From: Tamilnaduibacter salinus
GTDB taxonomy: Bacteria; Pseudomonadota; Gammaproteobacteria; Pseudomonadales; Oleiphilaceae
Reading direction: 5' to 3'
Length of the DNA stretch: 64,000 nt
Assembly: GCF_003096655.1 (NCBI RefSeq)
Contig: NZ_QEKQ01000001.1
Span: 248,001-312,000 of the forward strand
Made by a program: the position numbers and the translations under genes. Shown here one piece after another: positions 46,963 through 63,193 of this stretch. The notes beneath the pieces were generated by a model. It made no database searches, was not told the DNA's origin, and saw only the letters and a list, made by a program, of their open reading frames with translations. Each line of letters begins with the position of its first letter. The stretch's first letter is position 1.

Positions 46963-47356
46963 AAGAAACGTTCCTATTAGTTTCTAAAGTTTAATTACCT
47001 TGTCGACAAGGTTCTTTAAAACTCCGGAACCCGGCACACTCGGTTTTCCTGCCGCATGCGCCGGAATTCACGAATTTGATGGTAGGTAGAGCGCAGAGGG
47101 TTGTCAACTAGAAAACGCATCACGAAACAAATTTTCAGCGGGATTTCGGGAAGTTACAAAAGTATACAGAGCGAAGGTCAACAGTACGCCGAAATGATTA
47201 CGAATTGATCAGGTTGCAGCTTGATTTATGGGCTGCCTGTAATATGACAGCTTGCTGTTAGTCACTCCCGGCAAAAATGAGGTAGCATTTGCCCGCCCCC
47301 GGCCCGGAGGCCCCTCCCGGCTGCCCGCACATGAAATCGTTTCCTGGAGGCCTGTT
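46963..47356. other. divergent control region
   Basis: This gap separates the secreted-protein gene (leftward) from the sulfotransferase gene (rightward). It contains the strong leftward promoter at 47079-47107 and about 110 bases of leader for the secreted protein. No RNA gene was seen. The rightward promoter was not identified with confidence. Confidence 0.55.
47079..47107 (-). promoter_or_regulatory. sigma-70 promoter of the large secreted protein
   Basis: On the minus strand a perfect -35 TTGACA (47107-47102), an exact 17-base spacer and a -10 TACCAT (47084-47079) are present. Transcription would start near 47072 and leave a leader of about 110 bases before the ATG at 46962. Confidence 0.7.
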
Positions 47357-48133
47357 TTGGAAAAGGATAGGTTGGATATCGCCCCACCTGTGATCGTTCT
47401 TGGCATGCACCGAAGTGGCACAAGCTGCCTCACGGGCTCTCTTCAGCAGGCCGGGCTTGTTCTGGGTGATGTTCACACTGCAAACCCATTTAATAAGAAA
47501 GGAAATCGCGAGCACCCTCAGTTGATGGCACTGCATGAGCGGTTGCTGGAGGCGAACGGTGGAAGCTGGCACTGTCCGCCGGAAAGGGTTGAGTGGTCCG
47601 AGGATCTTCGAAAAGAAAGGGAGGATTTCTGTGCCCAGTTCGAGGGCGTCCGACGCTGGGGATTCAAAGACCCTCGGGCGTTGCTGGCCCTTGATGGCTG
47701 GTTGCAACGGTTTCCCGGTGCAAAATTGGTGGGCACCATTCGTCACCCAATGTCGGTGGCGCACTCGCTTCACCGAAGGGACCCTAACCTGCATTCTATT
47801 GAGGAGTATATGGGGCTCTGGGCGGCCTATAATCGCCAGTTGCTGGAGGCGTGGAGGCAATACAGCTTCTCGATCGTTGATTTTGATGAGCCTGATGATC
47901 GTTATGTGGCGTCCCTTGGTCGGGTTCTCAGGAAGCTCGGCCTGAAAGAGGGGCTGGCAAGCCGAGTACGTCGCGAGGGGCTTCTGAAAGGTCTCGCCTC
48001 CCGGGTCTCGCAGGAACGGTCGCCGTTTTTTGATCCGGCACTTCGCACCCATCGGCAGGAGGGAGTTGAAGGCCTGCCGGCACATATTGCAGAGCTCTAT
48101 CTGGAGCTCAAGCAAATAGCCGCACATTGGTAA
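47357..48133 (+). CDS. sulfotransferase family protein
   Basis: This protein of about 258 residues has the PAPS 5'-phosphosulfate loop at its start, VIVLGMHRSGTSCLTGSL (residues 12-29). The 3'-phosphate-binding region is TIRHPMSVAHSLHRRD, with the R and S that usually contact the cofactor. A TTG at 47357 is favoured because GGAGG lies six bases upstream; the frame is open further back to 47252. Its loop is clearly related to the one at the start of the giant protein at 55111, and it opens the polysaccharide locus. The acceptor is probably a sugar hydroxyl. Confidence 0.8.
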   Translation: MEKDRLDIAPPVIVLGMHRSGTSCLTGSLQQAGLVLGDVHTANPFNKKGNREHPQLMALHERLLEANGGSWHCPPERVEWSEDLRKEREDFCAQFEGVRRWGFKDPRALLALDGWLQRFPGAKLVGTIRHPMSVAHSLHRRDPNLHSIEEYMGLWAAYNRQLLEAWRQYSFSIVDFDEPDDRYVASLGRVLRKLGLKEGLASRVRREGLLKGLASRVSQERSPFFDPALRTHRQEGVEGLPAHIAELYLELKQIAAHW

Positions 48134-48153: not shown

Positions 48154-49197
48154 ATGATTCGGAATCTATTTTCCCGCTCGCGTCCTGCTGAATCCAGGCG
48201 CCCACGTCTCTCCTTTATTGTGATTGCCTATAACATGCAGCGGGAGGCGCTCAGAACTGTTGAATCCCTTTCCCGCCGCTACCAGCAGGGTAGTGAGGAA
48301 GTGGACTACGAATTGGTGGTGGTCGATAACGCCTCGCCAGAGCCTCTGAACCTTGAGCCGGTTGGCGATATTGGTGTTCCTCTGGTTCTGGTTCGCCGGA
48401 ATCAGGCCCGGGTGTCGCCCGCAGATGCCATCAATATCGGCGTCGCGCGCTCCAGCGGGGACTATGTGGCGGTAATGATTGATGGCGCCCGCATGCTCAG
48501 CCCCGGCGTTGTGAGAGGCACAGCAGATGCCATTCGCCTGGCATCGCAGCCGGTGGTTGCTGTTCTGGGGTTGCACCTTGGGCCTGCCCATCAACGGGTG
48601 ACCGTTGAGCAGGGGTACAGCAAAAAAGTAGAAGATCAGTTGCTGGACTCGATTCACTGGCCTGCACACGGTTACAAGCTATTTGAAATTGCCGCCTGGG
48701 GTGGTTCCTGCGCGGCCGGTTGGCTGGGCATTGCGGCAGAGAGCAATTGCATCTGCGTGTCGCGCCGCCTCTACGATGCGCTGGGCGGTTATGATGAAGG
48801 GTTCGAGATGCCCGGCGGTGGTCTGGTGAACCTGGACTTCTACAAGCGGGCGGTTGAGCACCCGGACTCCTCTCTTATCTACTTGGCCGGTGAAGGGTGT
48901 TTTCATCAGTTGCACGGCGGGGTAACCACCGGCAAGCGCCAGCAGGGCCACTCTTTTGAAGAGCTGAACGAAGAGTACCGACAGTTGAGGGGTGAGGGAT
49001 TTACCCCGCCCACCAAGCAGCCTTTGCTGTTTGGAAAGCTCAATCCCATGCATGCCCCAGCGCTGCTGAACGCTTGCGAAAAGGTTCTGCAGACTCACCC
49101 TTTAACGACAGTGCAGGAAAAATGTGCTCCCTTTCTTGCTGGCAGCGTCGGAAGCGATCACCCGAATCCGGATTTGGGAGGTGCTTCCAGTGAATAG
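48154..49197 (+). CDS. family 2 glycosyltransferase
   Basis: This 347-residue GT-A transferase opens with LSFIVIAYNMQREALRTVESL (about 19-39). The nucleotide-binding strand VVVDNAS follows, and MIDGARMLSPG stands where the DxD motif is expected. The usual second Asp is replaced, so metal binding may differ. It sits between the sulfotransferase and ABC exporter genes. The last bases overlap the permease start. Confidence 0.8.
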   Translation: MIRNLFSRSRPAESRRPRLSFIVIAYNMQREALRTVESLSRRYQQGSEEVDYELVVVDNASPEPLNLEPVGDIGVPLVLVRRNQARVSPADAINIGVARSSGDYVAVMIDGARMLSPGVVRGTADAIRLASQPVVAVLGLHLGPAHQRVTVEQGYSKKVEDQLLDSIHWPAHGYKLFEIAAWGGSCAAGWLGIAAESNCICVSRRLYDALGGYDEGFEMPGGGLVNLDFYKRAVEHPDSSLIYLAGEGCFHQLHGGVTTGKRQQGHSFEELNEEYRQLRGEGFTPPTKQPLLFGKLNPMHAPALLNACEKVLQTHPLTTVQEKCAPFLAGSVGSDHPNPDLGGASSE

Positions 49198-49963
49198 GGC
49201 GGTAAACTGGTTTGATATTGTCTGGCTACGCGCGGCAGCCGAACTGCACCGGGACGTTACCCGCACTTATCTGGGTATTCTGTGGTGGGTGATTGAGCCC
49301 CTGCTGTACATGACGGCGTTTTACCTCATTTTTGCCATGGGCATTCGTGGCGGTGAAGACGGCGAGGGTTTCGTGGGCTTTTTGCTGGCAGGGCTGGTGA
49401 TCTGGAAGTGGTTTTCAACCACGGTGATCCAGGGCGCCGGTGCATTGCTGTCTAACCGGGGGCTTATTCAGCAGGTGTACCTGCCCAAGGTGCTCTTGCC
49501 ATTGATTCCTGTAATGGCCAATACCCTCAAGTTCGGCTTGGTGCTGGTTTTGCTGCTCGGTTACGTGTGGGTTTTTCAGCGTCCGCCCGGTTGGGACTGG
49601 CTGGCGCTGTTTCCGGTGCTGGCGGCGGCGCTGTTGCTGGTGGCCGGTTGTACGCTGTTTTCTGCGGCACTGGTACCCTTTGCCGAAGATCTCCGGATGC
49701 TGATTAATAACGGCATGCTGCTGATGATGTTTCTCTCCGGTGTGTTTTTCGATGTGGCGGACTTTCCCGAGGCGGTCCGGGATTGGTTTTATCTGAACCC
49801 CCTGGTCGGTCTGTTGGAGGGGGTGAGACAGGTCTTGCTTGCCTCGGGGCTGCCGGATTGGGAGGGGGTGGCTTATGCTGCAGGCTTCGGCGGCGTTCTT
49901 TGCGCGTTGGCAGTGACTTTTCTGGTTCGGTTTGATCGGGTTTACCCGAAACGGGTGGCGTAA
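49190..49963 (+). CDS. polysaccharide ABC exporter permease (Wzm/KpsM-like)
   Basis: This 257-residue permease has six membrane segments and the ABC-2 pattern. The amphipathic start LRAAAELHRDVTRTYLGILWWVIEPLL is typical of Wzm/TagG proteins, and a periplasmic loop before the last helix has FYLNPLVGLLEGVRQ. It exports a completed lipid-linked glycan. The GTG at 49190 follows a GGGAGG site and overlaps the preceding stop; an in-frame start at 49124 lies inside the glycosyltransferase. Confidence 0.88.
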   Translation: MNRAVNWFDIVWLRAAAELHRDVTRTYLGILWWVIEPLLYMTAFYLIFAMGIRGGEDGEGFVGFLLAGLVIWKWFSTTVIQGAGALLSNRGLIQQVYLPKVLLPLIPVMANTLKFGLVLVLLLGYVWVFQRPPGWDWLALFPVLAAALLLVAGCTLFSAALVPFAEDLRMLINNGMLLMMFLSGVFFDVADFPEAVRDWFYLNPLVGLLEGVRQVLLASGLPDWEGVAYAAGFGGVLCALAVTFLVRFDRVYPKRVA

Positions 49964-50670
49964 TGGCTGATCATAAGGATTGCCTGCTTCAGGTCTCCTC
50001 GGCCGGCGTTGCCTATCCGTCAGGGGGCGTTTTTTCACGACACAAGCACTGGGCCCTCGAGGATGTCAGCTTTGATCTTCACGATGGTGAGGTCGTGGGG
50101 GTGATTGGACGCAATGGCGCTGGCAAGAGCACGCTGCTGAAGCTGCTGGCGGGTATTATCGGTCCTGATCGCGGCACCGTCTGGCATAAACCCGGTGTTC
50201 GCACCTCCCTGCTGGCGTTGCAGGTGGGTTTTTTGCCGGAACTCACGGGTGAGGAAAACGCCGTCCTCAGTTGTGTCCTGCTGGGTATGACCCGTAAAAC
50301 AGCGAAGGCTCGGCTGGATGCCATTGCCGAATTTGCGGAAATTGGCGAAGCGATGGGTGAGCCGCTCTCAACCTATTCCTCCGGCATGCGCGCGCGCCTG
50401 GGCTTTGGTGTGGCCTTGGCCGCCTCTCCGGATGTTCTGCTGATTGATGAGGTGCTTGGGGTGGGGGATGCGCCTTTCCGCAAAAAGTCCTCGGCTATGC
50501 TGCGTGAGCGAATTGCCTCAGGGCAGTCCGCCATAGTTGTCTCTCATAGCATGAATACCCTGAGGGATTTGTGCAGCAAGCTGGTGGTGATTGATAAAGG
50601 TCGCAGTGTTCTTTGTGGCCCCATCGACGAGGTTCTGCCCCAGTACGAGGCGATGGTGGCTAATGGCTGA
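49963..50670 (+). CDS. polysaccharide ABC exporter ATPase (Wzt/KpsT-like, short form)
   Basis: This 235-residue ATPase has Walker A GRNGAGKST (49-57), signature YSSGMRARLGF, Walker B VLLIDEVLGVGD and switch His in VVSHSMN. These are the hallmarks of the teichoic acid/O-antigen exporter subfamily. It ends right after the ATPase domain and lacks the C-terminal carbohydrate-binding domain of chain-capped O-antigen Wzt proteins. Start and stop overlap both neighbours. Confidence 0.9.
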   Translation: MADHKDCLLQVSSAGVAYPSGGVFSRHKHWALEDVSFDLHDGEVVGVIGRNGAGKSTLLKLLAGIIGPDRGTVWHKPGVRTSLLALQVGFLPELTGEENAVLSCVLLGMTRKTAKARLDAIAEFAEIGEAMGEPLSTYSSGMRARLGFGVALAASPDVLLIDEVLGVGDAPFRKKSSAMLRERIASGQSAIVVSHSMNTLRDLCSKLVVIDKGRSVLCGPIDEVLPQYEAMVANG

Positions 50671-51532
50671 TCTGGCGTGCAGGCGGCTGGCGGTATCGCT
50701 GGTTGTTCATCATTGGTGTGAAACCGAGCTTTACCCGGCAGTAGAAACCCTGGTTAAGAGCCTGCTGGCTGCAAGGGACCAGGGCGCGCTGGGTGAGGCG
50801 GCGTTGTTTGTTGTCTATAACGGTGAGGCGCCGCTGGACTTCGGCAGCCGCTCTCGGGAGCTGGCGGGCTTTTTTCCGTTTCGGGTTGAAGTTCTGCCGG
50901 CCCAGGCGAATCGTGGTTATGGCAAAGCAAACAATCTTCTGCTGGAGAGCATTGCTCTGCAGGCTTTTGATGCCGCGCTGGTGATGAATCCGGATGTGGA
51001 GGTGGCAGAACAGGCTTTGCCGCGCATGCTGTGGCGGCTCTCCGGTGACCCGTCCTGCGGGTTGGTAGTGCCCCGGTTGCTGAACCCGGAAAGCGGCCGG
51101 GATGTGTATGGCTGCAAGCGGTACCCCTCGGTGGCGGTGCTCGCGGTGCGCCAGTTCCGGCTGTTGCAGCGGGTACCTGTCTTGCTGCGCCTCAATGCCC
51201 GTTACGAATACCGGGACAGGCGCCCGGAGTGGGAGCATCGGGGTGTGGAATTGTGCAGTGGGTGTTTCATGCTGGCCCGGATGCGTTTCTGGCAGGACCT
51301 GGGCGGCTTCGATACCCGGTATTTCATGTATTTTGAAGATTTTGACCTGTCTGTGCGCGCCGCCGCCCGAGGCTGGGTGCAGGTATACGAGCCCGGCGCG
51401 GTTGTGCGCCATTCCGGGGGCGGCGCGGCACGCAAGCCATTGAAACACCGCCTGTGGTTTGTGCGCTCGGCGTTCCGCTTCTTTATGCGCCACGGCTGGC
51501 GGTTCTGGCGAGTGGGTAAGGCGCCGCGCTGA
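50663..51532 (+). CDS. family 2 glycosyltransferase (rhamnosyltransferase-like)
   Basis: This 289-residue transferase is similar to WbbL-type rhamnosyltransferases: a start SLVVHHWCETELYPAVETL, NRGYGKANNLLLE, VMNPDVEV as the DxD-equivalent, and SGCFMLARMRFWQDLGGFDTRYFMYFEDFDLSVRA. With rfbBDAC next door, dTDP-L-rhamnose is the likely donor. The start overlaps the ATPase stop by eight bases. Confidence 0.85.
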   Translation: MADLACRRLAVSLVVHHWCETELYPAVETLVKSLLAARDQGALGEAALFVVYNGEAPLDFGSRSRELAGFFPFRVEVLPAQANRGYGKANNLLLESIALQAFDAALVMNPDVEVAEQALPRMLWRLSGDPSCGLVVPRLLNPESGRDVYGCKRYPSVAVLAVRQFRLLQRVPVLLRLNARYEYRDRRPEWEHRGVELCSGCFMLARMRFWQDLGGFDTRYFMYFEDFDLSVRAAARGWVQVYEPGAVVRHSGGGAARKPLKHRLWFVRSAFRFFMRHGWRFWRVGKAPR

Positions 51533-51637
51533 CAGGTTACATTTTTGCAACCGCAGGCCCGGAGCGGTTCTGTGAAAAGGCTCGCCTTATCTGTGATAAT
51601 GCGCGGTTTTCAAACTGGCTCCCGAGGGCTATTGCGG

Positions 51638-52717
51638 ATGATTCTGGTAACAGGTGGTTGCGGATTTATTGGTTCTAACTTTATCCGCCTGTGGCTCGCC
51701 GAAAAAGACGAGCCCCTGGTAAATCTTGATGCGCTTACATACGCCGGCAACGCCGAAAATCTCGCCGATATTCAGGATAACCCCGCTTACCATTTTGAAA
51801 AGGTGGATCTGAGAGACAGCAAGGCGGTGCGCGCGGTGGTGGATTTTTACCGGCCCCGTGCGGTTTTGCATTTTGCGGCGGAAAGCCACGTAGATCGCTC
51901 CATCAAGGAACCGGAAGCCTTTCTGCAAACCAACGTGATGGGCACATTCAATCTTTTGGACAGTGCCCTGAATGCTTGGCGTGAGCAGGGCGAACCGGAG
52001 GAATTCCGGTTTCTGCATGTGTCCACCGATGAGGTGTACGGATCGCTGTCCATGACAGACCCGGCTTTCACCGAACAACATCCGTACCAGCCAAACAGCC
52101 CCTATTCGGCTTCGAAAGCCGCTTCGGACCACCTGGTTCGGGCCTGGCACCATACCTACGGGCTGCCGGTGCTTACGTCAAATTGCTCCAACAACTACGG
52201 CCCGTATCAGTTTCCGGAAAAGCTGATTCCGTTGATGATCGAACGCGCGTTGGCGGGCGAGACGCTGCCGGTGTATGGCGATGGCAGTAATGTGCGGGAC
52301 TGGCTGTACGTAGAGGACCACTGCAAGGCCCTGATGGTGGTGCTGGAGAAAGGTGTTCCGGGCGAAACCTATAACATTGGTGGCCGGGCGGAGCGCTCCA
52401 ATCTGGATGTGGTGGAGAGCCTGACGAACATGCTCCAGATTCTTAAGCCCAGGCAGGGTGGCTATCGCGAGCTGATCGAATGTGTGCCGGATCGGCCTGG
52501 CCATGACCGCCGTTATGCCATCGATACCCGGTTTATTTCCGAGCAGCTGGGCTGGTATCCGGACGTCGGTTTCGGCGATGGTCTGCTTAAAACCGTTGAA
52601 TGGTACCTGGCCAACCGGCAATGGGTGGACAATGTGAAATCCGGCGAGTACATGAAGTGGGTGGATGGCCACTACGCGGCCGGCAGTTCGGTCAGTGATC
52701 CATCTGAAAATCCATAA
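51638..52717 (+). CDS. rfbB: dTDP-glucose 4,6-dehydratase
   Basis: This 359-residue enzyme performs step two of dTDP-L-rhamnose synthesis. It has NAD loop TGGCGFIGSN (5-14), catalytic segment STDEVYGSL, YSASKAASDHLVRA with the Tyr-Lys pair, and the NCSNNYGPYQFPEKLIPL block typical of RfbB. The ATG at 51638 gives the standard MILVTGG start. It is the first of four rhamnose genes in the order B-D-A-C. Confidence 0.97.
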   Translation: MILVTGGCGFIGSNFIRLWLAEKDEPLVNLDALTYAGNAENLADIQDNPAYHFEKVDLRDSKAVRAVVDFYRPRAVLHFAAESHVDRSIKEPEAFLQTNVMGTFNLLDSALNAWREQGEPEEFRFLHVSTDEVYGSLSMTDPAFTEQHPYQPNSPYSASKAASDHLVRAWHHTYGLPVLTSNCSNNYGPYQFPEKLIPLMIERALAGETLPVYGDGSNVRDWLYVEDHCKALMVVLEKGVPGETYNIGGRAERSNLDVVESLTNMLQILKPRQGGYRELIECVPDRPGHDRRYAIDTRFISEQLGWYPDVGFGDGLLKTVEWYLANRQWVDNVKSGEYMKWVDGHYAAGSSVSDPSENP

Positions 52718-52733
52718 GGAAGGCGGACAGATA

Positions 52734-53621
52734 ATGCGTATTCTGGTAACAGGAAGTGACGGACAGATCGGCCATGAACTCCTGAAAACTCTGGCGCCAC
52801 TGGGTGAGGTTGTTGGCATAACGCGCGCCGATGGAGATCTGGCGTCCCCGGAGGTTGTGGACTCCCTGCTGGAGCGCTTTCGCCCGGGTGTTGTGGTTAA
52901 CCCGGCTGCCTACACCGCAGTGGATCAGGCCGAAGGCGAAGAGACTGTCGCCCGGGGGCTGAATGCCGGGTTGCCGGAAAAACTCGCCCGGTGGGCTGAG
53001 GCCAACGGAGCGCTGCTGGTGCATTATTCTACGGATTATGTCTACGCCGGTAATGGCGAAGCGCCCATGCCAGAGAGCGAGCCAACGGCGCCGTTGTCGG
53101 TTTACGGTAAAACCAAACTGGCGGGTGATGAGGCGATTTTGGCCCATTCACCCTCCGCGGTTATTCTGCGCACGTCCTGGGTTTACGGGGCTCGCGGGCG
53201 CAACTTCATGCTGACCATGTTGAAGCTGGCCGCTGAGCGGAATGAGCTCAAGGTGGTGGCCGATCAGTGGGGCGCGCCAACGCCAGCCTGGCTGATTGCC
53301 CAGGTTACCGCATTGGTTATCCGGGCCCGGCTCTTGGGCAATGACGCGATACGCGGCGTGTATCATCTTACCTGTCGGAAAGCGACGAGCTGGTGTGGTC
53401 TTGCCCGTGAAATCATCCGCTTGGCCGGTGAGCGGGGGGCACCATTGAAGATGGGCGAGCAACGGGTATTCCCGATTCCAACCAGTGAATACCCGGCGCC
53501 GGCGCCCCGGCCGAAAAACTCCCGGCTTGATGTCAGCAGGATTGAGCAGGCGCTGGCAATTCAGTTGCCAGACTGGAAAGCCGCACTGGGCGTGACGCTG
53601 GGCGATTGGCACAAGGACTGA
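52734..53621 (+). CDS. rfbD: dTDP-4-dehydrorhamnose reductase
   Basis: This 295-residue enzyme performs the last step of dTDP-L-rhamnose synthesis. The Rossmann loop [11 protein letters not shown], the [13 protein letters not shown] block, the STDYVYAG block, [12 protein letters not shown] with Tyr-Lys, and [18 protein letters not shown] are all RfbD signatures. It follows rfbB by 16 bases with AAGGA nearby. Confidence 0.97.
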
Positions 53622-53626
53622 CCACG

Positions 53627-54523
53627 ATGAAAAGCACAAAGCGCAAAGGGATTATCCTCGCCGGAGGTTCCGGTACCCGGTTACACCCCTGCACCCTGGC
53701 TACTTCTAAGCAGTTGTTGCCGGTGTATGACAAGCCTATGGTCTATTACCCGTTGTCCACACTGATGCAGTCGGGTATCCGGGATATTCTGCTGATCTCC
53801 ACGCCCCAGGATCTGCCGCGTTTTGAGCAACTGCTGGGTGACGGGAGCCAGTGGGGCATTTCCCTGCAGTACGCGGTGCAGAACGAACCAAATGGACTGG
53901 CCGAAGCATTCCTGATTGGGGAGTCTTTCGTCGACGGCGGCCCTAGTGCTTTGGTGCTGGGGGACAATCTGTTCCACGGCAGTAATTTCCGGGAACTGCT
54001 GCACCGGGCAGATGGCCAGGCTTCGGGTGCGACTGTGTTCGCCTATCCGGTTCACGATCCGGAGCGGTATGGCGTGGTTGCGTTCAACAAAGACCGCAAG
54101 GTGGTCAGCATTGAGGAGAAGCCGGAATCTCCCAAATCCCGCTATGCCGTTACCGGGCTCTATTTTTATGACGAGCAGGTGGTAGATATTGCCAAAGAGG
54201 TGAAACCCTCCCACCGGGAAGAGCTGGAAATCACCGATATCAATGCCCATTACCTGGAGCACGACCAGCTACACGTGGAGTTGATGGGGCGCGGGTATGC
54301 CTGGCTGGACACCGGCACCCACGATTCCCTGCTGGAAGCCTCCCATTTCATCGCTACGCTGGAGCACCGTCAGGGCCTGAAAGTAGCCTGCCCTGAGGAG
54401 ATTTCCTGGCGCAATGGCTGGATAAACGACGAAACCCTGGAAAAGATGGGGCAGCAGTTCAGCAAAACCGGCTACGGCAGGTACCTGCTGGATTTGTTGC
54501 GTTTCGGGGACATGGAGAGTTGA
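53627..54523 (+). CDS. rfbA: glucose-1-phosphate thymidylyltransferase
   Basis: This 298-residue enzyme makes dTDP-glucose, the first step of the pathway. The nucleotide loop [20 protein letters not shown] (13-32), the LGDNLFHG metal site, VEEKP-type segment [11 protein letters not shown] and [14 protein letters not shown] are canonical. The ATG at 53627 lies five bases after the rfbD stop. Confidence 0.97.
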
Positions 54524-54524
54524 T

Positions 54525-55085
54525 ATGAATGTTGAAAAGACGCCGCTCGAAGGCGTTCTGATTCTTGAGCCCCGGGTTTTTGGTGACGACCGGGGCTGGT
54601 TTTACGAGAGCTTCAACGTCGCCCGCTTCAACGAGATTGTGGGCAAAGAAGTCAGTTTTGTGCAGGACAACCATTCCTGCTCCGGTCGGGGTGTGTTGAG
54701 AGGTATTCACTTCCAGACTGCAGGTGCTGCACAGGGAAAACTGGTTCGTGCCACCGCCGGCGAGATTTTTGATATCGCGGTTGACCTGCGTAAAAGCTCG
54801 CAGACGTTTGGTCATTGGACCGGAGCGCTGCTCAGCGCTGAAAACAAACGCCAGCTTTGGGTACCAGCTGGTTTTGGCCACGCCTTTTTGGTCACCAGTG
54901 AGATGGCCGAAGTTCAATACAAGGTCGATGATTACTGGTCGCCGGACCATGAGCGTAGCTTGCGCTGGGACGACCCTTCCGTTGGCATAGCCTGGCCGGA
55001 CGTGGGCGAGATACAGCTCTCTGACAAAGACCGAGTTGCGCCTGATCTCAACCTTCTGAATGCGCAGGGTGATGTGTTTGAGTGA
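54525..55085 (+). CDS. rfbC: dTDP-4-dehydrorhamnose 3,5-epimerase
   Basis: This 186-residue cupin epimerase has the blocks FGDDRGWFYESF, QDNHSCSGRGVLRGIHFQ with the catalytic His, VDLRKSSQTFG and WVPAGFGHAFLV. It starts two bases after the rfbA stop and completes the rhamnose cassette. Its 3' end is close to or overlapping the start of the giant glycosyltransferase. Confidence 0.96.
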   Translation: MNVEKTPLEGVLILEPRVFGDDRGWFYESFNVARFNEIVGKEVSFVQDNHSCSGRGVLRGIHFQTAGAAQGKLVRATAGEIFDIAVDLRKSSQTFGHWTGALLSAENKRQLWVPAGFGHAFLVTSEMAEVQYKVDDYWSPDHERSLRWDDPSVGIAWPDVGEIQLSDKDRVAPDLNLLNAQGDVFE

Positions 55086-55110: not shown

Positions 55111-58100
55111 ATGGGTGTCGTGCTGGTTGTAGGTATGCATCGTTCAGGGACGAGCGCGATTTGCAGGCTTCTTGATAATGCTGGTGTTGATTTTGGCACG
55201 AATCTGATCCCTCCCGGGGACGATAACCCTCTAGGGTTCTGGGAGGATCGCGACTTTATTGGCATGAACGAGGAGTTGCTTGGAAGCGTTGATGCCTGGC
55301 AAAGAGTAGTGCTGCCGACACTTGGGAGTAGCGAGCAATGGCAGCGCAAGGCCAAGACATTTCTCGCAAGATGGCTGGACAACCGCTCCTCCGGTGCGGC
55401 TGCGGTTGGGCTCAAAGACCCGAGGGTTTCCAGAACCCTGGAGCAGTGGTTGCCTTTCTTGAAGAGGCCTCAGGTTTTGTTCGTTGTTCGTAATCCACTG
55501 TCGGTGGCGCACTCTTTAAATCGGCGCGACGGCATGTCTGTAGAGTATGGGCTTGCACTCTGGTTCGTTTATAACTTTGAAGCTTTTAAAGCTCTTCAGG
55601 ACCACTGCGTTGCGTTTCAAGTGGTCAACTATGACCTTTTGATGGGAGGCGACACTGACCAGAAAGAGCAGATCCAGAATTTTCTAGGCCTAACTGATCT
55701 GAACATGTCTCTGTTAGAGCGTAAACTTCAACATCAGAGATTTGATACGTCTGATGTACACGAGGACAATTTTATTGAAGAACTGTCAGCGCGCTTTTGG
55801 GAGGTGCTTACCAGTGATTCCCCTGATTACGGTTCTTTTGAAACTGCTTACAAAAGTGTAATGGCCTTTTACAAGCCGTTCAGCGATTTGGCTGATCGGC
55901 TTAACGAAGCCCAAGAATATTCTTCCCACGTCGAAGCAGATAACCAGTTGCTTCGCGAACAAGTTAGAAAATTCGAGCTTGAAGCTGATGAATCGAAGCG
56001 CTATGCGACTCACTTGGAGGCAGACATAGAAAGTTTGCATGCGAGCATTGATCATCTTGAAGGTGATTTGGATGGTTTGCGTCAGACAATAGCCTCCGAA
56101 CAACGTCAGAATCGGTCGATGGGAAAAACGATCAACGACTTGCAGAACAATCTGTTGCGTCAAGAGGAATTGCTTGAACAGAAAGAATCCGAAATGGCGG
56201 ACACCGTTGCAAAATACCAGTCTTTGCAAACGGATTATCAGCAGTTGGAGCAAGTGCGTTGGCAGGTAGACGTTCTTTTACAGCAGTTGTATAGCTCCAA
56301 ATCCTGGCGGTGGACAGCCCCCCTGCGGTATTTTCGAAAAGTTCTTAGCGTTGGCATCAGGAAAACGGTTTTACCGGTAAGATGGATGGCGTCGTATTTT
56401 TTGCGAAGACTGTCGTCTGTCAAAGCTCGAGCATTGGTTTCTTCCAGGCAAAATGCCACCGCTTTGCAGCACCTTGTGGATAATCGGTCTCTTGAGAAAT
56501 TCTGGAATCCATTCCCCGACGCTATGCCGCCGGAACTGCCGAAGATAGGATTGTCGGTTGTTTTATATAACAACGGGCGGTGGCTTCAAACCTTTATGGA
56601 GAGTCTCCTCTCTCAAGATTATCCGCTTGACAAGATACACTTGTTCTTCGTTGATAATTCCTCAACTGACGACACACACTCAAAGCTTAAAGACCTGCTT
56701 GCGAGCAACGCACAACGATTCGCCAGTTTGCAAGTGGCGCGTAGACCAAACGCTGGCTTTGGTAGCGGGCACGATTATGCAATTCGAAAGCTTAACGTTG
56801 ACTATGTGCTCGTCAGCAATGTTGACCTCGAGTTTCAGAGGGAGGCTATTGTCAATGCCGTTTCTGCTGCTCTCTCAGACAAAGATGTAGCCAGTTGGGA
56901 GTTGCGGCAATCTCCTTACGAGCATCCCAAATACGTGGATCCAGTAACGCTGCAAGTAAATTGGAGTTCTCACGCCTGTATTCTTATTGAACGCAAGGTT
57001 TATCTGGAAGTTGGCGGGTATGAGCCGCGTATTTTTATGTATGGCGAGGACGTAGAACTTTCCTATCGCTTTCGTCGCGCTGGTTACCAATTAAAGTATT
57101 TGCCTCGCGCGGTTGTCTTCCACCATACATATGAGTCTGAAGGCGAAATTAAGCCCCTGCAGTTTTCCGGAAGCACTGCGGCGAATCTTCTGATCCGATG
57201 TCGGTATGGCAATATTAGCGATGTCCTTGTAGGATACTTTTTAATCTTTGCGTTGGCATTTCGTGGTGCGGGTTTCAATGATAGCCGCAGATTACTATGG
57301 CGTTCTTTGCCCGGTACGTTAGCGAAGAGCATGTTCTTTTTAGCTACTAGAGAAAAGAGTAAGGCAGCCTTCCCTTTTCGTGGGTTCGATTATGACCTTT
57401 GCAGAGAAGGGGCTTTTTGGGAAAGCGATCGAGCAATAATTGACCAGCTGGAAGACCTGCCGTTAGTAACGGTTATCACTAGAACCGTTGAAGGTCGGGA
57501 AGCGTTACTGAATCAGGCAATTTTTTCAGTGATGAACCAGACATATCCATCTATTCAGCACATTATTACTGAAGATGGTGGCGACAGCACGAAGGCATTG
57601 TGTGAGCAAGTGGGAGGAGTTAGTCCAGAGCGATACGAGATCCGGCATCTTAGATGCCCCAAAAAAGGCAGAGCTCATGCGGCGAATCGTGCACTGGACG
57701 AGGCGGCTGGACAGTACGTTGTAATACTCGATGACGACGACCTATTGCTACCAGATCATATCGAAGCATTGGTAACAGAAATACTGCGCAACGACAGTGA
57801 TGCTGCCTATTCGCTCGCCTGGGATACCCCTGTGAAGTACTTTGATAAATCGCGGGGCTATTACACTGAACATGCTCACATAACGCTGCCTCTTTTTTAT
57901 CAAGAATTTGACCGGGAGGTACTTTTTCATCATAACTTCTTGCCCATTCAGAGTGTGCTTTTCAAGCGAAGCCTTGCTGGTCAAACCATTCGTTTTGATG
58001 AGGATCTTGACTATCTGGAAGATTGGGTATTCTGGAAGCGGCTAACTAAGGGTGCTGATTTCCGATTTGTAAAGAAGACAACCTCTATTTACAAAACTCC

Positions 58101-58182
58101 GCTTTCTGTTAATGAAAATTTCGCTCGCAGGCGTTTGTTAGATGAAGCATACAAAATAGCAAGCGAAAGGCCCATTAGTTAA
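55111..58182 (+). CDS. fused sulfotransferase / coiled coil / double family 2 glycosyltransferase
   Basis: This 1023-residue protein has several modules. Residues 1-230 are a sulfotransferase: the PAPS loop VGMHRSGTSAICRLL and FVVRNPLSVAHSLNRRD. Residues 255-390 are a long charged coiled coil ending in SSKSWRWTAPLR, a linker common in large polysaccharide transferases. About 475-720 is a GT2 domain (LSVVLYNNGRWLQTFMESL, RRPNAGFGSGHDYA, then GEDVELSYRFRRAG). About 783-1000 is a second GT2 (VTVITRTVEGREALLNQAI, with VILDDDDLLLPDH near 870). It may sulfate and extend the same glycan. I prefer the ATG at 55111; starts at 55060-55078 overlap rfbC. The gene is less GC-rich than the rfb genes. Confidence 0.82.
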   Translation: MGVVLVVGMHRSGTSAICRLLDNAGVDFGTNLIPPGDDNPLGFWEDRDFIGMNEELLGSVDAWQRVVLPTLGSSEQWQRKAKTFLARWLDNRSSGAAAVGLKDPRVSRTLEQWLPFLKRPQVLFVVRNPLSVAHSLNRRDGMSVEYGLALWFVYNFEAFKALQDHCVAFQVVNYDLLMGGDTDQKEQIQNFLGLTDLNMSLLERKLQHQRFDTSDVHEDNFIEELSARFWEVLTSDSPDYGSFETAYKSVMAFYKPFSDLADRLNEAQEYSSHVEADNQLLREQVRKFELEADESKRYATHLEADIESLHASIDHLEGDLDGLRQTIASEQRQNRSMGKTINDLQNNLLRQEELLEQKESEMADTVAKYQSLQTDYQQLEQVRWQVDVLLQQLYSSKSWRWTAPLRYFRKVLSVGIRKTVLPVRWMASYFLRRLSSVKARALVSSRQNATALQHLVDNRSLEKFWNPFPDAMPPELPKIGLSVVLYNNGRWLQTFMESLLSQDYPLDKIHLFFVDNSSTDDTHSKLKDLLASNAQRFASLQVARRPNAGFGSGHDYAIRKLNVDYVLVSNVDLEFQREAIVNAVSAALSDKDVASWELRQSPYEHPKYVDPVTLQVNWSSHACILIERKVYLEVGGYEPRIFMYGEDVELSYRFRRAGYQLKYLPRAVVFHHTYESEGEIKPLQFSGSTAANLLIRCRYGNISDVLVGYFLIFALAFRGAGFNDSRRLLWRSLPGTLAKSMFFLATREKSKAAFPFRGFDYDLCREGAFWESDRAIIDQLEDLPLVTVITRTVEGREALLNQAIFSVMNQTYPSIQHIITEDGGDSTKALCEQVGGVSPERYEIRHLRCPKKGRAHAANRALDEAAGQYVVILDDDDLLLPDHIEALVTEILRNDSDAAYSLAWDTPVKYFDKSRGYYTEHAHITLPLFYQEFDREVLFHHNFLPIQSVLFKRSLAGQTIRFDEDLDYLEDWVFWKRLTKGADFRFVKKTTSIYKTPLSVNENFARRRLLDEAYKIASERPIS

Positions 58183-58267
58183 GGGGCTTATCGTTATTCG
58201 GTTAAGCTTTATTTCTTGCGTTTGATTATGAATTAGATATTCTATTTTTTTGAGGGTAGAGGATATT

Positions 58268-58981
58268 TTGAAAATTTATAATAAATCTACTAGGTACGCT
58301 TTTTTGCATATAGGAAAAACGGCAGGTACAGCAGTCAGGCAGTCTATTGCATCGCAGTTTACTCCTGATGCAGTGTGCCCATATTACTTCCACAGGCAAA
58401 TAGAGTCCATGCCTGATGAAGAACTCGAGAAATATGGATTTATATCTGCACACATTGGTTATGATCTTGCGAAGTCGCTATCGGACAACGTCTTTACTGT
58501 TCTGAGAAATCCCTTTGATCGTGTAGTGTCTCTTTACTACTATTGGCGATCCGTCGAGGGAGATAGAGGTGGGCCGGTGATAGCCAAAGAAAGTCGAAAT
58601 TTTGAAGAGTTTTTGGAGGTCAAGAAAGCACCCGTAATTGTAGATATATTTAATGCACAAACATGGCAATTGGCGCACGGCCACGAGGGCTATACTCGAA
58701 AAAAACTCCGTGGTGCCTATACAGAGGATCAGTTACTTCAAAAGGCAAAAGAGAACCTCGAGCAGCTTTCAGTCGTTGGCGTTCAAGATAACTTGGGGCT
58801 ATTTCTTCAGAGAATCAATCAAAAATTCGGCTGGAATGTTAATGAAATCCTAGAATCTAATCGTAATAAAGAGCGGCCAAAGATCGATGATGTTCCTGTT
58901 AGGACAAAAAGAAAGATTTATGATCTTGTATATTTGGATCTAGAGCTTTATTTTTTCGCACAAAAGCTGGCTGATTATTGA
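58268..58981 (+). CDS. sulfotransferase family 2-like protein
   Basis: This protein of about 237 residues has the start YAFLHIGKTAGTAVRQSI, in which GKTAGT is the PAPS-binding loop of the heparan/chondroitin 2-O-type sulfotransferase family. The 3'-phosphate segment is TVLRNPFDRVVSLYYYW. A TTG at 58268 has AGAGGA just upstream; another TTG at 58250 is possible. The gene is AT-rich compared with the rfb genes and closes the polysaccharide locus. Confidence 0.8.
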   Translation: MKIYNKSTRYAFLHIGKTAGTAVRQSIASQFTPDAVCPYYFHRQIESMPDEELEKYGFISAHIGYDLAKSLSDNVFTVLRNPFDRVVSLYYYWRSVEGDRGGPVIAKESRNFEEFLEVKKAPVIVDIFNAQTWQLAHGHEGYTRKKLRGAYTEDQLLQKAKENLEQLSVVGVQDNLGLFLQRINQKFGWNVNEILESNRNKERPKIDDVPVRTKRKIYDLVYLDLELYFFAQKLADY

Positions 58982-59320: not shown

Positions 59321-60836
59321 GTAGTCGCCCTTGCAAAACAAAAATGTGCAATAAAAACATACCTCTGTGGACGTTTTCCGGTATAATTTCTCCCCGAAAA
59401 TGCAGTCACAGCCTCAAAACCGTGTAGTTTTCCATTGCCATGATTCCAAGTGACGACCGCCAGCCACCCCAGAAAGGGCTTTTTGAGCTCTATCTCGAAG
59501 ACATGATTAACCTGCGTCATCCGTTGGTCCGGATGGCTGAACGCATCGACTGGCCGCAGTGCGAACAGCAGTTCGGTCCGTACTGGTGCCCGGACAATGG
59601 TCGTCCCGGTCACCCGATCCGGCTTCATGTTGGGCTGCAGATGTTCAAACACATGCAGGGGCTGTCCGACCGCGAGCTTCTGGATCAGTGGGTTGAGAAC
59701 CCGTACTGGCAGTATTTCTGCGGCGAGTCGACGTTTCAGCACGAGCCGCCGATGGATGAATCCACCATGGGCCGATTTCGTCGACGCATCGGCGAGGAGG
59801 GTGCCCGGGCGCTTCTGCGGATGACGGTGGAGCTGGGCGAAGGGACCGGAACGGTGGCCCCGGGGAGCTTCCGGGTGGCAGTGGCGGACACCACGGTGAT
59901 GCACAAGGCCATAGCACATCCCAGCGAGGCCCGGTTGATGGCGCGCGCTCACCGGCGCCTGGTGGCCCGGGCCAAGGCGGAGGGAGTGACGTTTCGCCAG
60001 ACCTATGAGCGCTCACTGGATGGGCTGCTCATGCGGATTGGGCGTTACGCCCACGCCCGCCAGTTTCGGCGGATGCACAAACGTCTTCGCAAGCTCCATG
60101 GGTATCTCGGACGGGTGTGCGGTGATGTGATCCGCCAAAAGCCTTACGGCCAGCGCAGCCAGGCGCTGGATGACAGCCTCTATCAGGCACTGTATCTGCT
60201 TCGCCAGTACGCCGATCCCAAACACCGGCCCAAGCTTTACAGCCTGCACGAGCCGGAGGTGGCCTGCATCGCCAAGGGCAAGGCACGCACCCCGTATGAG
60301 TTTGGCAGCAAGGTCAGCGTCATCACCACCGCCAAAGAAGGCTTCGTGCTCGACTGTCAGGCGCTGCGGGGCAACCCCTACGATGGCCACACATTGCATG
60401 AGGGGCTGATGCGAGTGCACCGCCACTGTGGCCACCTGCCGGTACACACTCTGGTGGATCGGGGGTATCGCGGCAGTGAGATCACCCCGCTGTCCAACGT
60501 GCGCATCACGGGGAAACAAAAAGGCAAAGGCACGGCCCACCCGGAGCATCAGCACCGGCGCAACAGCGTTGAGCCGATCATCGGACACCTCAAGCACGAA
60601 GGGCTACTGGACCGCTGCCACCTGCGCGGACATGACGGCGACCGAATCCACGCGGTGCTTTGCGCGGTTGGATTCAATCTGAGGAAGATCCTGCGACGCC
60701 TGGCCCGTCTTTTTGGGCTTCGGTTCATCCAGGAGTTGTTGGGGCTGCTGCGGGAATCCGGAACGCAAACCGGCCAATCAATGAATCAGGTGGTTTCCAT
60801 TCCCGTTTGAAAGGCGGGTTTTGCAAGGGCGACTAC
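59321..60836 (+). mobile_element. complete IS5-superfamily insertion sequence with 19-bp inverted repeats
   Basis: The ends are perfect inverted copies of GTAGTCGCCCTTGCAAAAC (59321-59339 and 60818-60836). One transposase gene fills the interior. If the flanking TA is a target duplication, the element proper would be 59323-60834. It interrupts the IS30 fragment on the left and lies five bases from the stop of the ankyrin gene on the right. Confidence 0.88.
59440..60810 (+). CDS. IS5-superfamily (IS1182-like) transposase
   Basis: This 456-residue DDE transposase appears intact. The N-terminal domain has HPLVRMAERIDWPQCEQQF and GRPGHPIRLHVGLQMFKHM. The catalytic residues are D150 in VAVADTTVMHK, an Asp near 338 in TLVDRGYRGSE and a Glu near 378 in NSVEPIIGHLKHEG. 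The reading frame is open, so the element may be active or recently active. Confidence 0.92.
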   Translation: MIPSDDRQPPQKGLFELYLEDMINLRHPLVRMAERIDWPQCEQQFGPYWCPDNGRPGHPIRLHVGLQMFKHMQGLSDRELLDQWVENPYWQYFCGESTFQHEPPMDESTMGRFRRRIGEEGARALLRMTVELGEGTGTVAPGSFRVAVADTTVMHKAIAHPSEARLMARAHRRLVARAKAEGVTFRQTYERSLDGLLMRIGRYAHARQFRRMHKRLRKLHGYLGRVCGDVIRQKPYGQRSQALDDSLYQALYLLRQYADPKHRPKLYSLHEPEVACIAKGKARTPYEFGSKVSVITTAKEGFVLDCQALRGNPYDGHTLHEGLMRVHRHCGHLPVHTLVDRGYRGSEITPLSNVRITGKQKGKGTAHPEHQHRRNSVEPIIGHLKHEGLLDRCHLRGHDGDRIHAVLCAVGFNLRKILRRLARLFGLRFIQELLGLLRESGTQTGQSMNQVVSIPV

Positions 60837-62370: not shown

Positions 62371-62626
62371 AATTCAACGACAACCGTCGTATATCACACA
62401 GTCGCCTATGTCCAACCCAAGTTATTCGATACGGCAGGATAATGTTAAGAAAAGAAGAAAGGTATGCCTGGATTCCGCTTTCCGTGCTATAGAGATATAC
62501 GACACCTGTCGTTGATCTCCAGACTAATCCTGTCGTCTATCTCCACGAGACTAGAACGTTCTCTTCCGGAAATCAAAGCGTTACGGAGTAGCCTCTGGGG
62601 ATATACGACAGGTGTCGTATACCCCC
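62371..62626. repeat. cluster of ACGACA-N2-TGTCGT palindromes
   Basis: Three full palindromes with the core ACGACA..TGTCGT or close to it occur at 62377-62390, 62499-62512 and 62605-62618, and a half copy lies near 62531-62543. Two of them are extended by further pairing that differs between copies: GAGAT/ATCTC at 62492-62519 and GGGG/CCCC at 62597-62626. This fills much of the 441-base gap before the GFA gene. They may be REP-like repeats or binding sites. Confidence 0.75.
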
Positions 62627-62648
62627 GGTCCCGATTGTTAGGTCTCTT

Positions 62649-62693
62649 TGGTCGCCTTCCCAGGCGACTCCGAAGTCGGAGACATCGGCTACA
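62649..62693 (-). repeat. dispersed palindromic repeat unit
   Basis: This is the fifth copy of the repeat seen at 22.7, 27.4 and 28.1 kb, here on the minus strand. The constant head is unchanged and the second hairpin is GTCGCC-TGGGAA-GGCGAC with a longer loop. It lies where GC-rich sequence resumes after the AT-rich ankyrin region. Confidence 0.85.
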
Positions 62694-62791
62694 GGTGGCG
62701 ATCCTTGTCCGTGATGTAGAAACCCATTGGCCATCCACCCCGCAGGCGTTACGCTGCTTGAACGCCCAATCAAATAAAAAGGAGGCCAGTG

Positions 62792-63193
62792 ATGTCACAT
62801 CTCACCGGTTCGTGTCTGTGCGGCGCGGTGAAGATCCGTGTGCCGGATGAATTTCCCTTTATGGGCAACTGCCACTGTTCGGAGTGTCGCAAGTGGACGG
62901 GCTCGGCGTATTCCTCGGCGGCGATGGTGGATGCCGGGGACTTTGAGGTGACGCAGGGGGAGGAGGCGATCAGCACCTACCAGAAGACGGATGAGACGGA
63001 CCTGGGCTTCTGTAAGCACTGCGGATCGAGCTTGTATTCCAAGAAGGTGAACCGGGGCAAGTACATCATCCGGCTGGGCATTCTGGATGATACGCCGACG
63101 CAGCGCCCGGCGGCCCACATTTTCGTGGGCTCCAAGGCGCCGTGGTACGAGATCAGCGACGGCCTGCAGCAGTTCGAGGAAGGGCCGAACTGA
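62792..63193 (+). CDS. GFA family (Mss4-like) protein
   Basis: This 133-residue zinc-binding protein has the ligand set C8/C10 (SCLCGAV), C27-x-C29-x2-C32 (NCHCSECRKWTGS) and C73-x2-C76 (FCKHCGSSLYS). It is a paralogue of the protein encoded at 6-419, with the same length and spacing but a different sequence. The ATG at 62792 has AAGGAGG six bases upstream; a GTG one codon earlier is less likely. It converges on the mutase gene with two bases between stops. Confidence 0.9.
   Translation: MSHLTGSCLCGAVKIRVPDEFPFMGNCHCSECRKWTGSAYSSAAMVDAGDFEVTQGEEAISTYQKTDETDLGFCKHCGSSLYSKKVNRGKYIIRLGILDDTPTQRPAAHIFVGSKAPWYEISDGLQQFEEGPN

What the first reader, a model, noticed from the sequence alone, without database searches (positions are those of the whole stretch)
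55111..58182. Single chain joining sulfotransferase, coiled coil and two glycosyltransferases
Residues 1-230 bind PAPS by motif, a 130-residue coiled coil follows, and two GT2 domains form the rest. The coiled coil could act as a molecular ruler as in WbdA/WbdD-type systems, and the sulfotransferase could cap the growing chain. That would fit with the short Wzt lacking a cap-recognition domain, or need another cap reader.
Basis: partly seen in the sequence, partly recalled or inferred. Interest (0 to 1): 0.6.

Follow-up and report, generated by a model that had tools for sequence, protein, structure and literature searches.

The report
Sulfotransferase-headed sugar-chain assembly protein
One bacterial protein carries a sulfate-adding enzyme, a long rod and two sugar-adding enzymes in a row, and its relatives swap the enzyme at the tip, which suggests that it builds a surface sugar chain and caps it with sulfate at a set length.

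Summary
Window 55111-58182 is one open frame of 1023 residues. It holds a PAPS-type sulfotransferase (about 1-235), a coiled coil (about 241-395) and two GT2 domains (about 478-700, 783-1000), and follows wzm, a short wzt and rmlBDAC.

The architecture is not a one-off. In a tree of 80 such GT2-GT2 bodies, the body stands alone or behind different N-terminal enzymes: methyltransferases, a GT99-like (Kdo-terminator) domain, deacetylases or sulfotransferase. The sulfotransferase head also sits on other glycosyltransferase bodies. This matches known polymerase-ruler-terminator proteins (WbdD, WbbB, Klebsiella O7 ORF6, WsaE). Sulfate termination over a ruler is therefore the best-supported mechanism (inferred, about 0.5).

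One defining feature fails: Wzt lacks the cap-reading domain, and no Wzt_C match was found in the genome. Where a Wzt was found, large sulfotransferase fusions mostly have a short one (12 of 17 loci, two capsule-type loci left out), methyl/Kdo fusions never (0 of 20); kinship is not corrected for. Many rods of the family, not this one, carry DNA tandem repeats that mostly keep heptad register.

I call it a new variant of a known kind. A 2019 census that may already list sulfotransferase terminators could not be read.

The parts
55111..58182 (+). ST-coiled coil-GT2-GT2 protein (1023 aa)
   Evidence: single open frame; full-length homologues
55111..55815 (+). Sulfotransferase head (res 1-235): GMHRSGTS 5'-PSB, KDPR, R127-P129-S135-R139 3'-PB
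   Evidence: Pfam Sulfotransfer_3; invariant residues; AF2 model pLDDT 89.8, VIA Z 15.9 to TPST1 with PAP. Motif names recalled.
55831..56295 (+). Coiled-coil rod (helices res 241-395)
   Evidence: heptad test, AF2 helices 241-329 and 336-395
56296..56361 (+). SKSWRWTAPLR motif and amphipathic stretch at rod end (res 396-417), possible membrane anchor
   Evidence: motif in 13 of 43 large ST ORFs and in other fusions; hydrophobic moment 0.57; pLDDT under 50 at 414-422
56542..57210 (+). GT2 domain A (res 478-700), NVD at 570-572
57457..58110 (+). GT2 domain B (res 783-1000), DDDD at 874-877
49124..49963 (+). Wzm, ABC-2 permease
   Evidence: Pfam ABC2_membrane; NCBIfam galactan export permease below cut-off
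49963..50670 (+). Wzt, 235 aa, no C-terminal cap-binding domain
   Evidence: ABC_tran over most of it and no Wzt_C; no Wzt_C in genome; best NCBIfam galactan Wzt/RfbE, below cut-off
51545..55085 (+). rmlB, rmlD, rmlA, rmlC (dTDP-L-rhamnose)
   Evidence: NCBIfam equivalogs TIGR01181, TIGR01214, TIGR01207, TIGR01221 over cut-off
47252..48133 (+). Stand-alone Sulfotransfer_3 protein, relative of the head
   Evidence: 34% identity to residues 4-175
48154..49197 (+). GT2 protein
50663..51532 (+). GT2 protein (role not known)
58250..58981 (+). Stand-alone Sulfotransfer_2 protein

Best explanation
It is a single-chain polymerase-ruler-terminator. The two GT2 domains, held at the membrane by the basic amphipathic stretch after the rod, extend a lipid-linked chain that probably contains L-rhamnose (dTDP-rhamnose genes adjoin). 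The coiled coil holds the sulfotransferase about 20 nm away. When the growing end reaches that distance, the head transfers sulfate from PAPS to the terminal sugar and blocks further growth. The CBM-less Wzm/Wzt then exports the chain. Shown: domain order, PAPS-site conservation, rod, neighbours, exchange of head enzymes. Inferred: activity, terminal acceptor, membrane anchoring, length control and order of export.
For: Anatomy as in characterised terminators (PMC11231755 passages). Heads of known terminator type occur on the same GT2-GT2 body: on a tree of 80 bodies the head label needs 22 changes (13 if headless rows are left out), ST 4, at least 3 by starred branches. In split cases a methyltransferase gene lies directly before the stand-alone GT2-GT2 gene (L080, L088, L090). 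ST+coil proteins also lie directly behind a Wzt with cap-binding domain, as a WbdD-like partner might (L158; G529; G106). The genome has CysC and CysN for PAPS. The first Foldseek hit of the whole model is chondroitin polymerase, a two-GT polymerase (TM 0.20/0.33, so the domains match but their arrangement does not superpose). Helix 241-395 x 1.485 A is about 23 nm; WbdD holds its enzyme about 200 A away (PMC5082667 passage). ST end to SWR motif spans 190-223 residues in 8 of the 13 large ST ORFs with the motif.
Against: No cap reader: short Wzt and no Wzt_C match in a 99.88% complete genome, while 20 of 20 methyl/GT99-type fusions with a Wzt have the long form. L039, whose Wzt (59% identical, short) is the most similar among the genome-contig loci, has the GT pair with no catalytic head, so a head seems dispensable in such systems. 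Three sulfotransferases in the locus suggest sulfation in more than one place. Aeromonas salmonicida has a sulfotransferase-domain gene in an ABC O-antigen locus and no such residue seen in the glycan (PMC4483657 passage). WsaE methylated independently of chain length in vitro (PMC2943079 passage).
Confidence: 0.5

Rival explanations
1. The head decorates the chain (in every repeat, or as an optional cap) without setting length. Extension and export are coupled through a CBM-less Wzm/Wzt, as in Klebsiella O1/O2, and the coil is a scaffold.
For: Short Wzt whose best NCBIfam model is galactan export Wzt/RfbE, though below its cut-off (so too for L038, L107, L167). In O1 a terminal pyruvyl group only diversifies the glycan and the transporter lacks a CBM (PMC11231755 passage). 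Three sulfotransferases in the locus. Headless homologue with short Wzt, L039, followed by a separate sulfotransferase gene.
Against: The head sits at the far end of a long rod, as terminators do. The same slot holds known terminator enzymes. Some sulfotransferase fusions adjoin a Wzt with cap-binding domain.
Confidence: 0.33
2. The sulfotransferase fold is a non-catalytic or otherwise-acting module, for example glycan binding or complex assembly, so no sulfate is added.
For: Aeromonas salmonicida precedent of a sulfotransferase-domain gene with no such residue found (PMC4483657 passage). E. coli K5 KfiB is called a putative sulfotransferase (PMC13171606 passage); that K5 is unsulfated is recalled.
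Against: PAPS-site motifs are invariant over 28 domains, the fold matches PAP-bound enzymes, and PAPS genes are in the genome and beside two relatives (L148 CysN, L157 CysNC).
Confidence: 0.1
3. Accidental fusion with no joint function: head and glycosyltransferases act on different glycans.
For: Such fusions can arise by cassette recombination; GC falls from 56-59% upstream to 47-50% at this gene.
Against: The head is N-terminal in 41 of 43 large ST ORFs, glycosyltransferase domains lie behind it in all 13 scanned with Pfam, and heads and bodies were exchanged repeatedly.
Confidence: 0.05

Closest known systems
Klebsiella pneumoniae O7 ORF6 (methyltransferase-kinase-CBM-coiled coil-GT2-GT2), PMC11231755 abstract and passages
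   Same: single chain; terminator at N-terminus, coiled coil, two C-terminal GT2 modules; dTDP-rhamnose genes and wzm/wzt in the cluster
   Different: head is methyltransferase-kinase plus CBM, not sulfotransferase; the NXD module is second there and first here. The paper says that in all terminated examples a CBM is attached to Wzt; here there is none.
WbbB, Klebsiella O12 (PMC11231755 passages; the WbbB paper itself not held)
   Same: polymerisation, termination and ruler in one polypeptide, terminator N-terminal
   Different: Kdo transferase head (GT99); CBM-bearing Wzt. Sequence not compared.
WsaE, Geobacillus stearothermophilus (PMC2943079, PMC3898925 passages)
   Same: N-terminal modifying enzyme, two rhamnosyltransferase domains, wzm/wzt/rml locus
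   Different: 2-O-methyltransferase head; chain-length independent methylation in vitro. Sequence not compared.
WbdD/WbdA, E. coli O9a (PMC3482155, PMC5082667 passages)
   Same: coiled-coil ruler of about 20 nm holding the terminator
   Different: polymerase is a separate protein; kinase-methyltransferase head; CBM-bearing Wzt
Klebsiella O1/O2 galactan export (PMC11231755 passage)
   Same: CBM-less Wzm/Wzt
   Different: length is set by transporter:polymerase stoichiometry there, not by a terminator

Membership tests
Capped-glycan (polymerase-terminator) ABC pathway | modifying enzyme at the far end of an extended coiled coil | tested here: met
   position and coil met; that the enzyme terminates is not tested
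Capped-glycan (polymerase-terminator) ABC pathway | GT modules of polymerase type on, or recruited to, the other end | tested here: met
   two GT2 domains; first fold hit a dual-GT polymerase; activity not tested
Capped-glycan (polymerase-terminator) ABC pathway | Wzm/Wzt in the locus | tested here: met
   ABC2_membrane and ABC_tran proteins at 49124-50670
Capped-glycan (polymerase-terminator) ABC pathway | cap-binding C-terminal domain on Wzt | tested here: not met
   235-aa Wzt without it; PF14524 absent from the genome, 0 of 1
Capped-glycan (polymerase-terminator) ABC pathway | terminal modification blocks growth and sets length | not testable with these tools
   needs glycan chemistry
PAPS-dependent sulfotransferase | 5'-PSB and 3'-PB residues | tested here: met
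   G8, H10, R11, G13, T14, S15, R127, S135, R139 invariant in 28 domains
PAPS-dependent sulfotransferase | sulfotransferase fold | tested here: met
   VIA Z 15.9, rmsd 3.5, 196 aligned to 5wrj_C; top 7 rows all tyrosylprotein sulfotransferases
PAPS-dependent sulfotransferase | sulfate transfer activity | not testable with these tools
   no assay
GT2 dual-module polymerase | two GT-A domains with metal-binding and catalytic motifs | tested here: met
   N570/D572, E646-D647 and D874/D876/D877, E970-D971 nearly invariant (90% or more of 47 rows)
WsaE / O7 ORF6 orthologue | sequence homology of the GT pair | not tested

The most novel reading that the evidence does not exclude
Sulfotransferase-headed rulers are a separate branch of ABC-exported glycan assembly: sulfate is the chain cap, length is set by the rod, and export is usually not gated by a Wzt cap reader. 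Rod length evolves by gain and loss of DNA tandem repeats that mostly keep heptad register, so chain length could be retuned quickly.
Probability: 0.33. Interest if true: 0.75.

Novelty: new variant of a known kind. Interest (0 to 1): 0.6.

Why it matters
The terminal groups named in the passages I read are methyl, phosphate or methyl-phosphate, Kdo, pyruvyl and, on S-layer glycans, amino sugars. A sulfate cap would be a new charge-bearing chemistry. The usual pairing with a CBM-less Wzt asks whether a ruler can set length without the export checkpoint, a question that becomes directly testable with one protein. The exchange of heads on one GT2-GT2 body gives a parts list for building glycans of chosen length and end group.

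Tried and rejected
Sequence error or separate proteins: rejected, since the frame is continuous and homologues are full length. Another Wzt_C cap reader in the genome: no PF14524 match. Tandem repeats in the window's own coil: none listed by TRF at score 40; residue lag 28 gives only z 2.0 and lag 16 z 2.4 against heptad-preserving shuffles, so not claimed. Phylogeny-corrected test of head type against Wzt type: only 2 independent pairs, cannot decide. Control for repeat arrays: arrays overlapping a coil in 9 of 39 ST genes, 3 of 20 other fusions, 2 of 38 other coil genes (Fisher p 0.047 ST against others, 0.73 ST against other fusions). One of the two control hits (L051) is itself the front part of a methyltransferase-headed gene that is broken in that record. 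The excess over ordinary coiled coils is therefore modest and not ST-specific. WsaE, WbbB and O7 ORF6 sequences could not be compared. Three key papers are not held: the Mann 2019 census, the Whitfield 2020 review and Williams 2017; the first may already predict sulfotransferase terminators.

Label caveats: head types other than ST were Pfam-tested on one representative per main cluster and extended by BLAST cluster, where single linkage joined ST and Methyltransf_24 rows and I split them by eye. GT99 rests on PF21912 just under its cut-off in L045 (25.0 against 27 bits). ST in the wider set rests on my own HMM; of 13 such large proteins scanned, Pfam showed no sulfotransferase family at E 0.001 in 4 (L156, L162, L165, L172). 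The 40 headless rows include L051 and L076, whose head is in the ORF just in front, and L057 and L102, cut by a contig end. Rows dropped: L150 (same contig as L042); L165 and L176 from the main Wzt count, because a KpsE-family protein beside the ATPase suggests capsule-type export (under that family's cut-off). L043 counts as no Wzt though a cut-off ORF there has an 89-bit match.
Full report
WHAT IS THERE. Window 55111-58182 (+) is a single frame of 1023 codons. A start at 55111 follows the rmlC stop by 25 bases and has GGAAA upstream. Pfam finds Sulfotransfer_3 at 4-195 and two GT2 domains. A heptad test marks residues 257-399, and over 266-395 G+P is 2.3% and E/K/R/Q 36%. AlphaFold2 with 47 aligned sequences gives mean pLDDT 86.9, helices 241-329 and 336-395, and confident GT domains; the rod is less sure, and no oligomer was modelled. 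Foldseek ranks chondroitin polymerase K4CP first (E 1e-23), a two-module GT polymerase, but with TM 0.20/0.33 and rmsd 20.6 the arrangement of domains does not superpose. The head folded alone (pLDDT 89.8) matches tyrosylprotein sulfotransferases with PAP (VIA Z 15.9, rmsd 3.5, 196 aligned). In 28 chosen heads G-M-H-R-x-G-T-S, K-x-P-R and R-x-P-x5-S-x3-R are invariant. The genome encodes an APS kinase and CysN, so PAPS can be made.

LOCUS. The order is sulfotransferase (47252), GT2, Wzm, Wzt of 235 aa, GT2, rmlB-D-A-C, this gene, Sulfotransfer_2 (58250), transposase (59440). GC drops from 56-59% over most upstream genes to 47-50% over this gene and 40% after it. In a relative of the same family (L148, genome G071) the block from the first sulfotransferase to rmlC is in the same order by sequence, with Wzt 89% identical. 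The slot after rmlC there holds a different sulfotransferase-headed protein with GT2 and GT4-type domains, and cysN lies a few genes on. The end of the locus therefore looks like an exchange cassette (inference).

FAMILY. The genome-contig scan found 210 relatives and kept the best 80. From these and the window I took 80 GT2-GT2 bodies into a quick tree. In the same ORF before them are: nothing large (N-part up to 200 aa) 40, sulfotransferase 11, methyltransferase types 16, GT99-like 6, polysaccharide deacetylase 3, and one each of PIG-L, acyltransferase 3, GT2 and unknown. The head label needs 22 changes on the tree, or 13 when the headless rows are left out; sulfotransferase needs 4, of which 3 are forced by starred branches. 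Some headless rows are cut or broken records, so 22 is on the high side. Window, L034 (Marinobacter lipolyticus) and L035 (Pseudomonas sp. 8O) form a starred clade, all sulfotransferase-headed. In L080, L088 and L090 a separate methyltransferase gene lies directly in front of the headless body. Fusion and separation of the same pair is classical evidence of joint function.

THE HEAD ELSEWHERE. In a sample of 369 genomes of the class, 22 besides the window's have a match to the head inside an open frame over 900 aa (rows at E 1e-15; only two candidates per genome were scored, so a lower bound). In the DNA I fetched, 43 ORFs over 600 aa carry the domain by my HMM, 41 of them at the N-terminus. 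Thirteen were Pfam-scanned: all have glycosyltransferase domains behind the head, as GT2+GT2, GT2+GT4, WbsX+GT2+GT4, a WsaF-like body or a single GT2, while Pfam itself recognised a sulfotransferase in 9 of the 13. Smaller sulfotransferase+coil proteins stand alone next to Wzt, somewhat like WbdD.

CAP READER. Kelly et al. 2024 (PMC11231755, abstract and passages; [quoted passage not shown] I scored Wzt near each body by BLAST to the window's Wzt (at least 100 bits). Methyl/GT99 heads: Wzt found in 20 of 22, all with a tail of at least 167 aa (Wzt_C confirmed by Pfam in the 3 tested). Sulfotransferase heads on the same body: found in 7 of 11, 5 short and 2 long (Fisher p 0.0003). Headless bodies: 12 long, 7 short, 21 none. 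Over all 42 loci with a large sulfotransferase ORF: 14 short, 5 long, 23 with none in the fetched DNA. Two of the short ones (L165, L176) have a KpsE-family neighbour, so they may be capsule exporters. Without them it is 12 short and 5 long, against 0 and 20 (p 3e-6). These p values ignore kinship, and the tree-based test has only 2 independent pairs and cannot decide. The 5 long Wzt all match Wzt_C, L143 only weakly (E 4e-4, under the cut-off). Three more cases pair a Wzt_C-type Wzt directly with a sulfotransferase: L158, G529 and G106. So a sulfate cap may be read in some systems. In the window's it is not read by Wzt_C: PF14524 has no match in the genome, against 88 of 369 sampled class genomes and 31 of 163 family genomes with one.

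RULER. The rod is about 23 nm if fully helical; WbdD holds its enzyme about 200 A from the polymerase, and coil changes shift chain length (PMC5082667 passage). From the end of the head to the SxSWRxTxPLR-like motif the span is 190-223 residues in 8 of the 13 large ST ORFs that have the motif, against 139, 276, 314, 366 and 591 in the rest; 30 of the 43 lack the motif. The motif lies at the coil end and begins a basic amphipathic stretch (moment 0.57), which I read as a membrane anchor (inference). Of 49 sulfotransferase genes, 19 have a tandem-repeat array in the linker; 20 of 21 arrays lie in the linker, which is 30% of the length (p 7e-10). Thirteen of 19 in-frame periods are multiples of 21 bases, where 1 in 7 is expected (p 1e-7). 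Relatives are not independent in these counts. Examples: L035 has 5.3 copies of 96 bases (95% match), and L152 and L154 (genus g170) have 4.1 and 8.8 copies of 21. L159 and L170, of one genus, differ by 7 residues in span. The window's gene has no such array. Repeats that keep register are expected in coiled coils generally, and my control is only weakly different (9 of 39 against 2 of 38, p 0.047; other fusions 3 of 20).

MECHANISM. Best reading: polymerase, ruler and terminator in one chain, with sulfate as the cap (0.5). The strongest rival is a decoration that does not set length, with extension coupled to export through a CBM-less transporter, as in Klebsiella O1/O2 (0.33). The headless L039, whose Wzm/Wzt are 52/59% identical to the window's, speaks for the rival.

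NOVELTY. WsaE (PMC2943079 passages), O7 ORF6, WbbB and WbdD define the kind; the sulfotransferase head and the missing reader are the variant. The word-start 'sulf' does not occur in PMC11231755 or PMC9445017. My searches listed no paper on a sulfotransferase terminator. That is judged by capped listings and passages of two papers, in a library that lacks most subscription papers. The Mann 2019 census, cited in PMC11231755, could not be read.

Noticed in passing
window 47252-48133, 55111-55815 and 58250-58981: Three sulfotransferases in one polysaccharide locus, two Sulfotransfer_3 (34% identical over 172 residues) and one Sulfotransfer_2, so the polymer may be sulfated at more than one site.
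   Followed up: partly
window 59440-60810: DDE transposase (DUF772/DDE_Tnp_1) just behind the locus; with the GC drop before it, it suggests a recombination edge.
   Followed up: no
L039 9869-12022: Microbulbifer homologue beside a similar short-Wzt transporter has the GT pair and a coil stub but no catalytic head, followed by a separate Sulfotransfer_1 gene: a natural headless variant.
   Followed up: partly
L154 9800-10930 and 10887-12257; L152 8851-9915: Two species of one genus carry 8.8 and 4.1 copies of a 21-base heptad-coding repeat in the rod; in L154 the array is read out of frame and the protein ends, which may be an error or a switched-off gene.
   Followed up: no
L045 8402-12283: Pseudomonas fluorescens fusion of a hexapeptide acyltransferase, a GT99-like/Capsule_synth domain, coil and the same GT2-GT2 body, next to a long Wzt.
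   Followed up: partly
L067 10567-13536 and L055/L059/L063: PIG-L and polysaccharide deacetylase heads on the same GT2-GT2 body with long Wzt: candidate unusual end modifications.
   Followed up: no
L157 1377-3356; L148 4001-5413: PAPS-synthesis genes (CysNC, CysN) lie near sulfotransferase-headed fusions.
   Followed up: yes
L165 2373-4985; L176 11774-14357: KpsE-family proteins beside short ABC transporters near sulfotransferase-headed giants: the heads may also serve capsule-type export.
   Followed up: partly
window 62464-62850 and 62487-62798: Overlapping opposite-strand ORFs of similar length near the window end; not examined.
   Followed up: no
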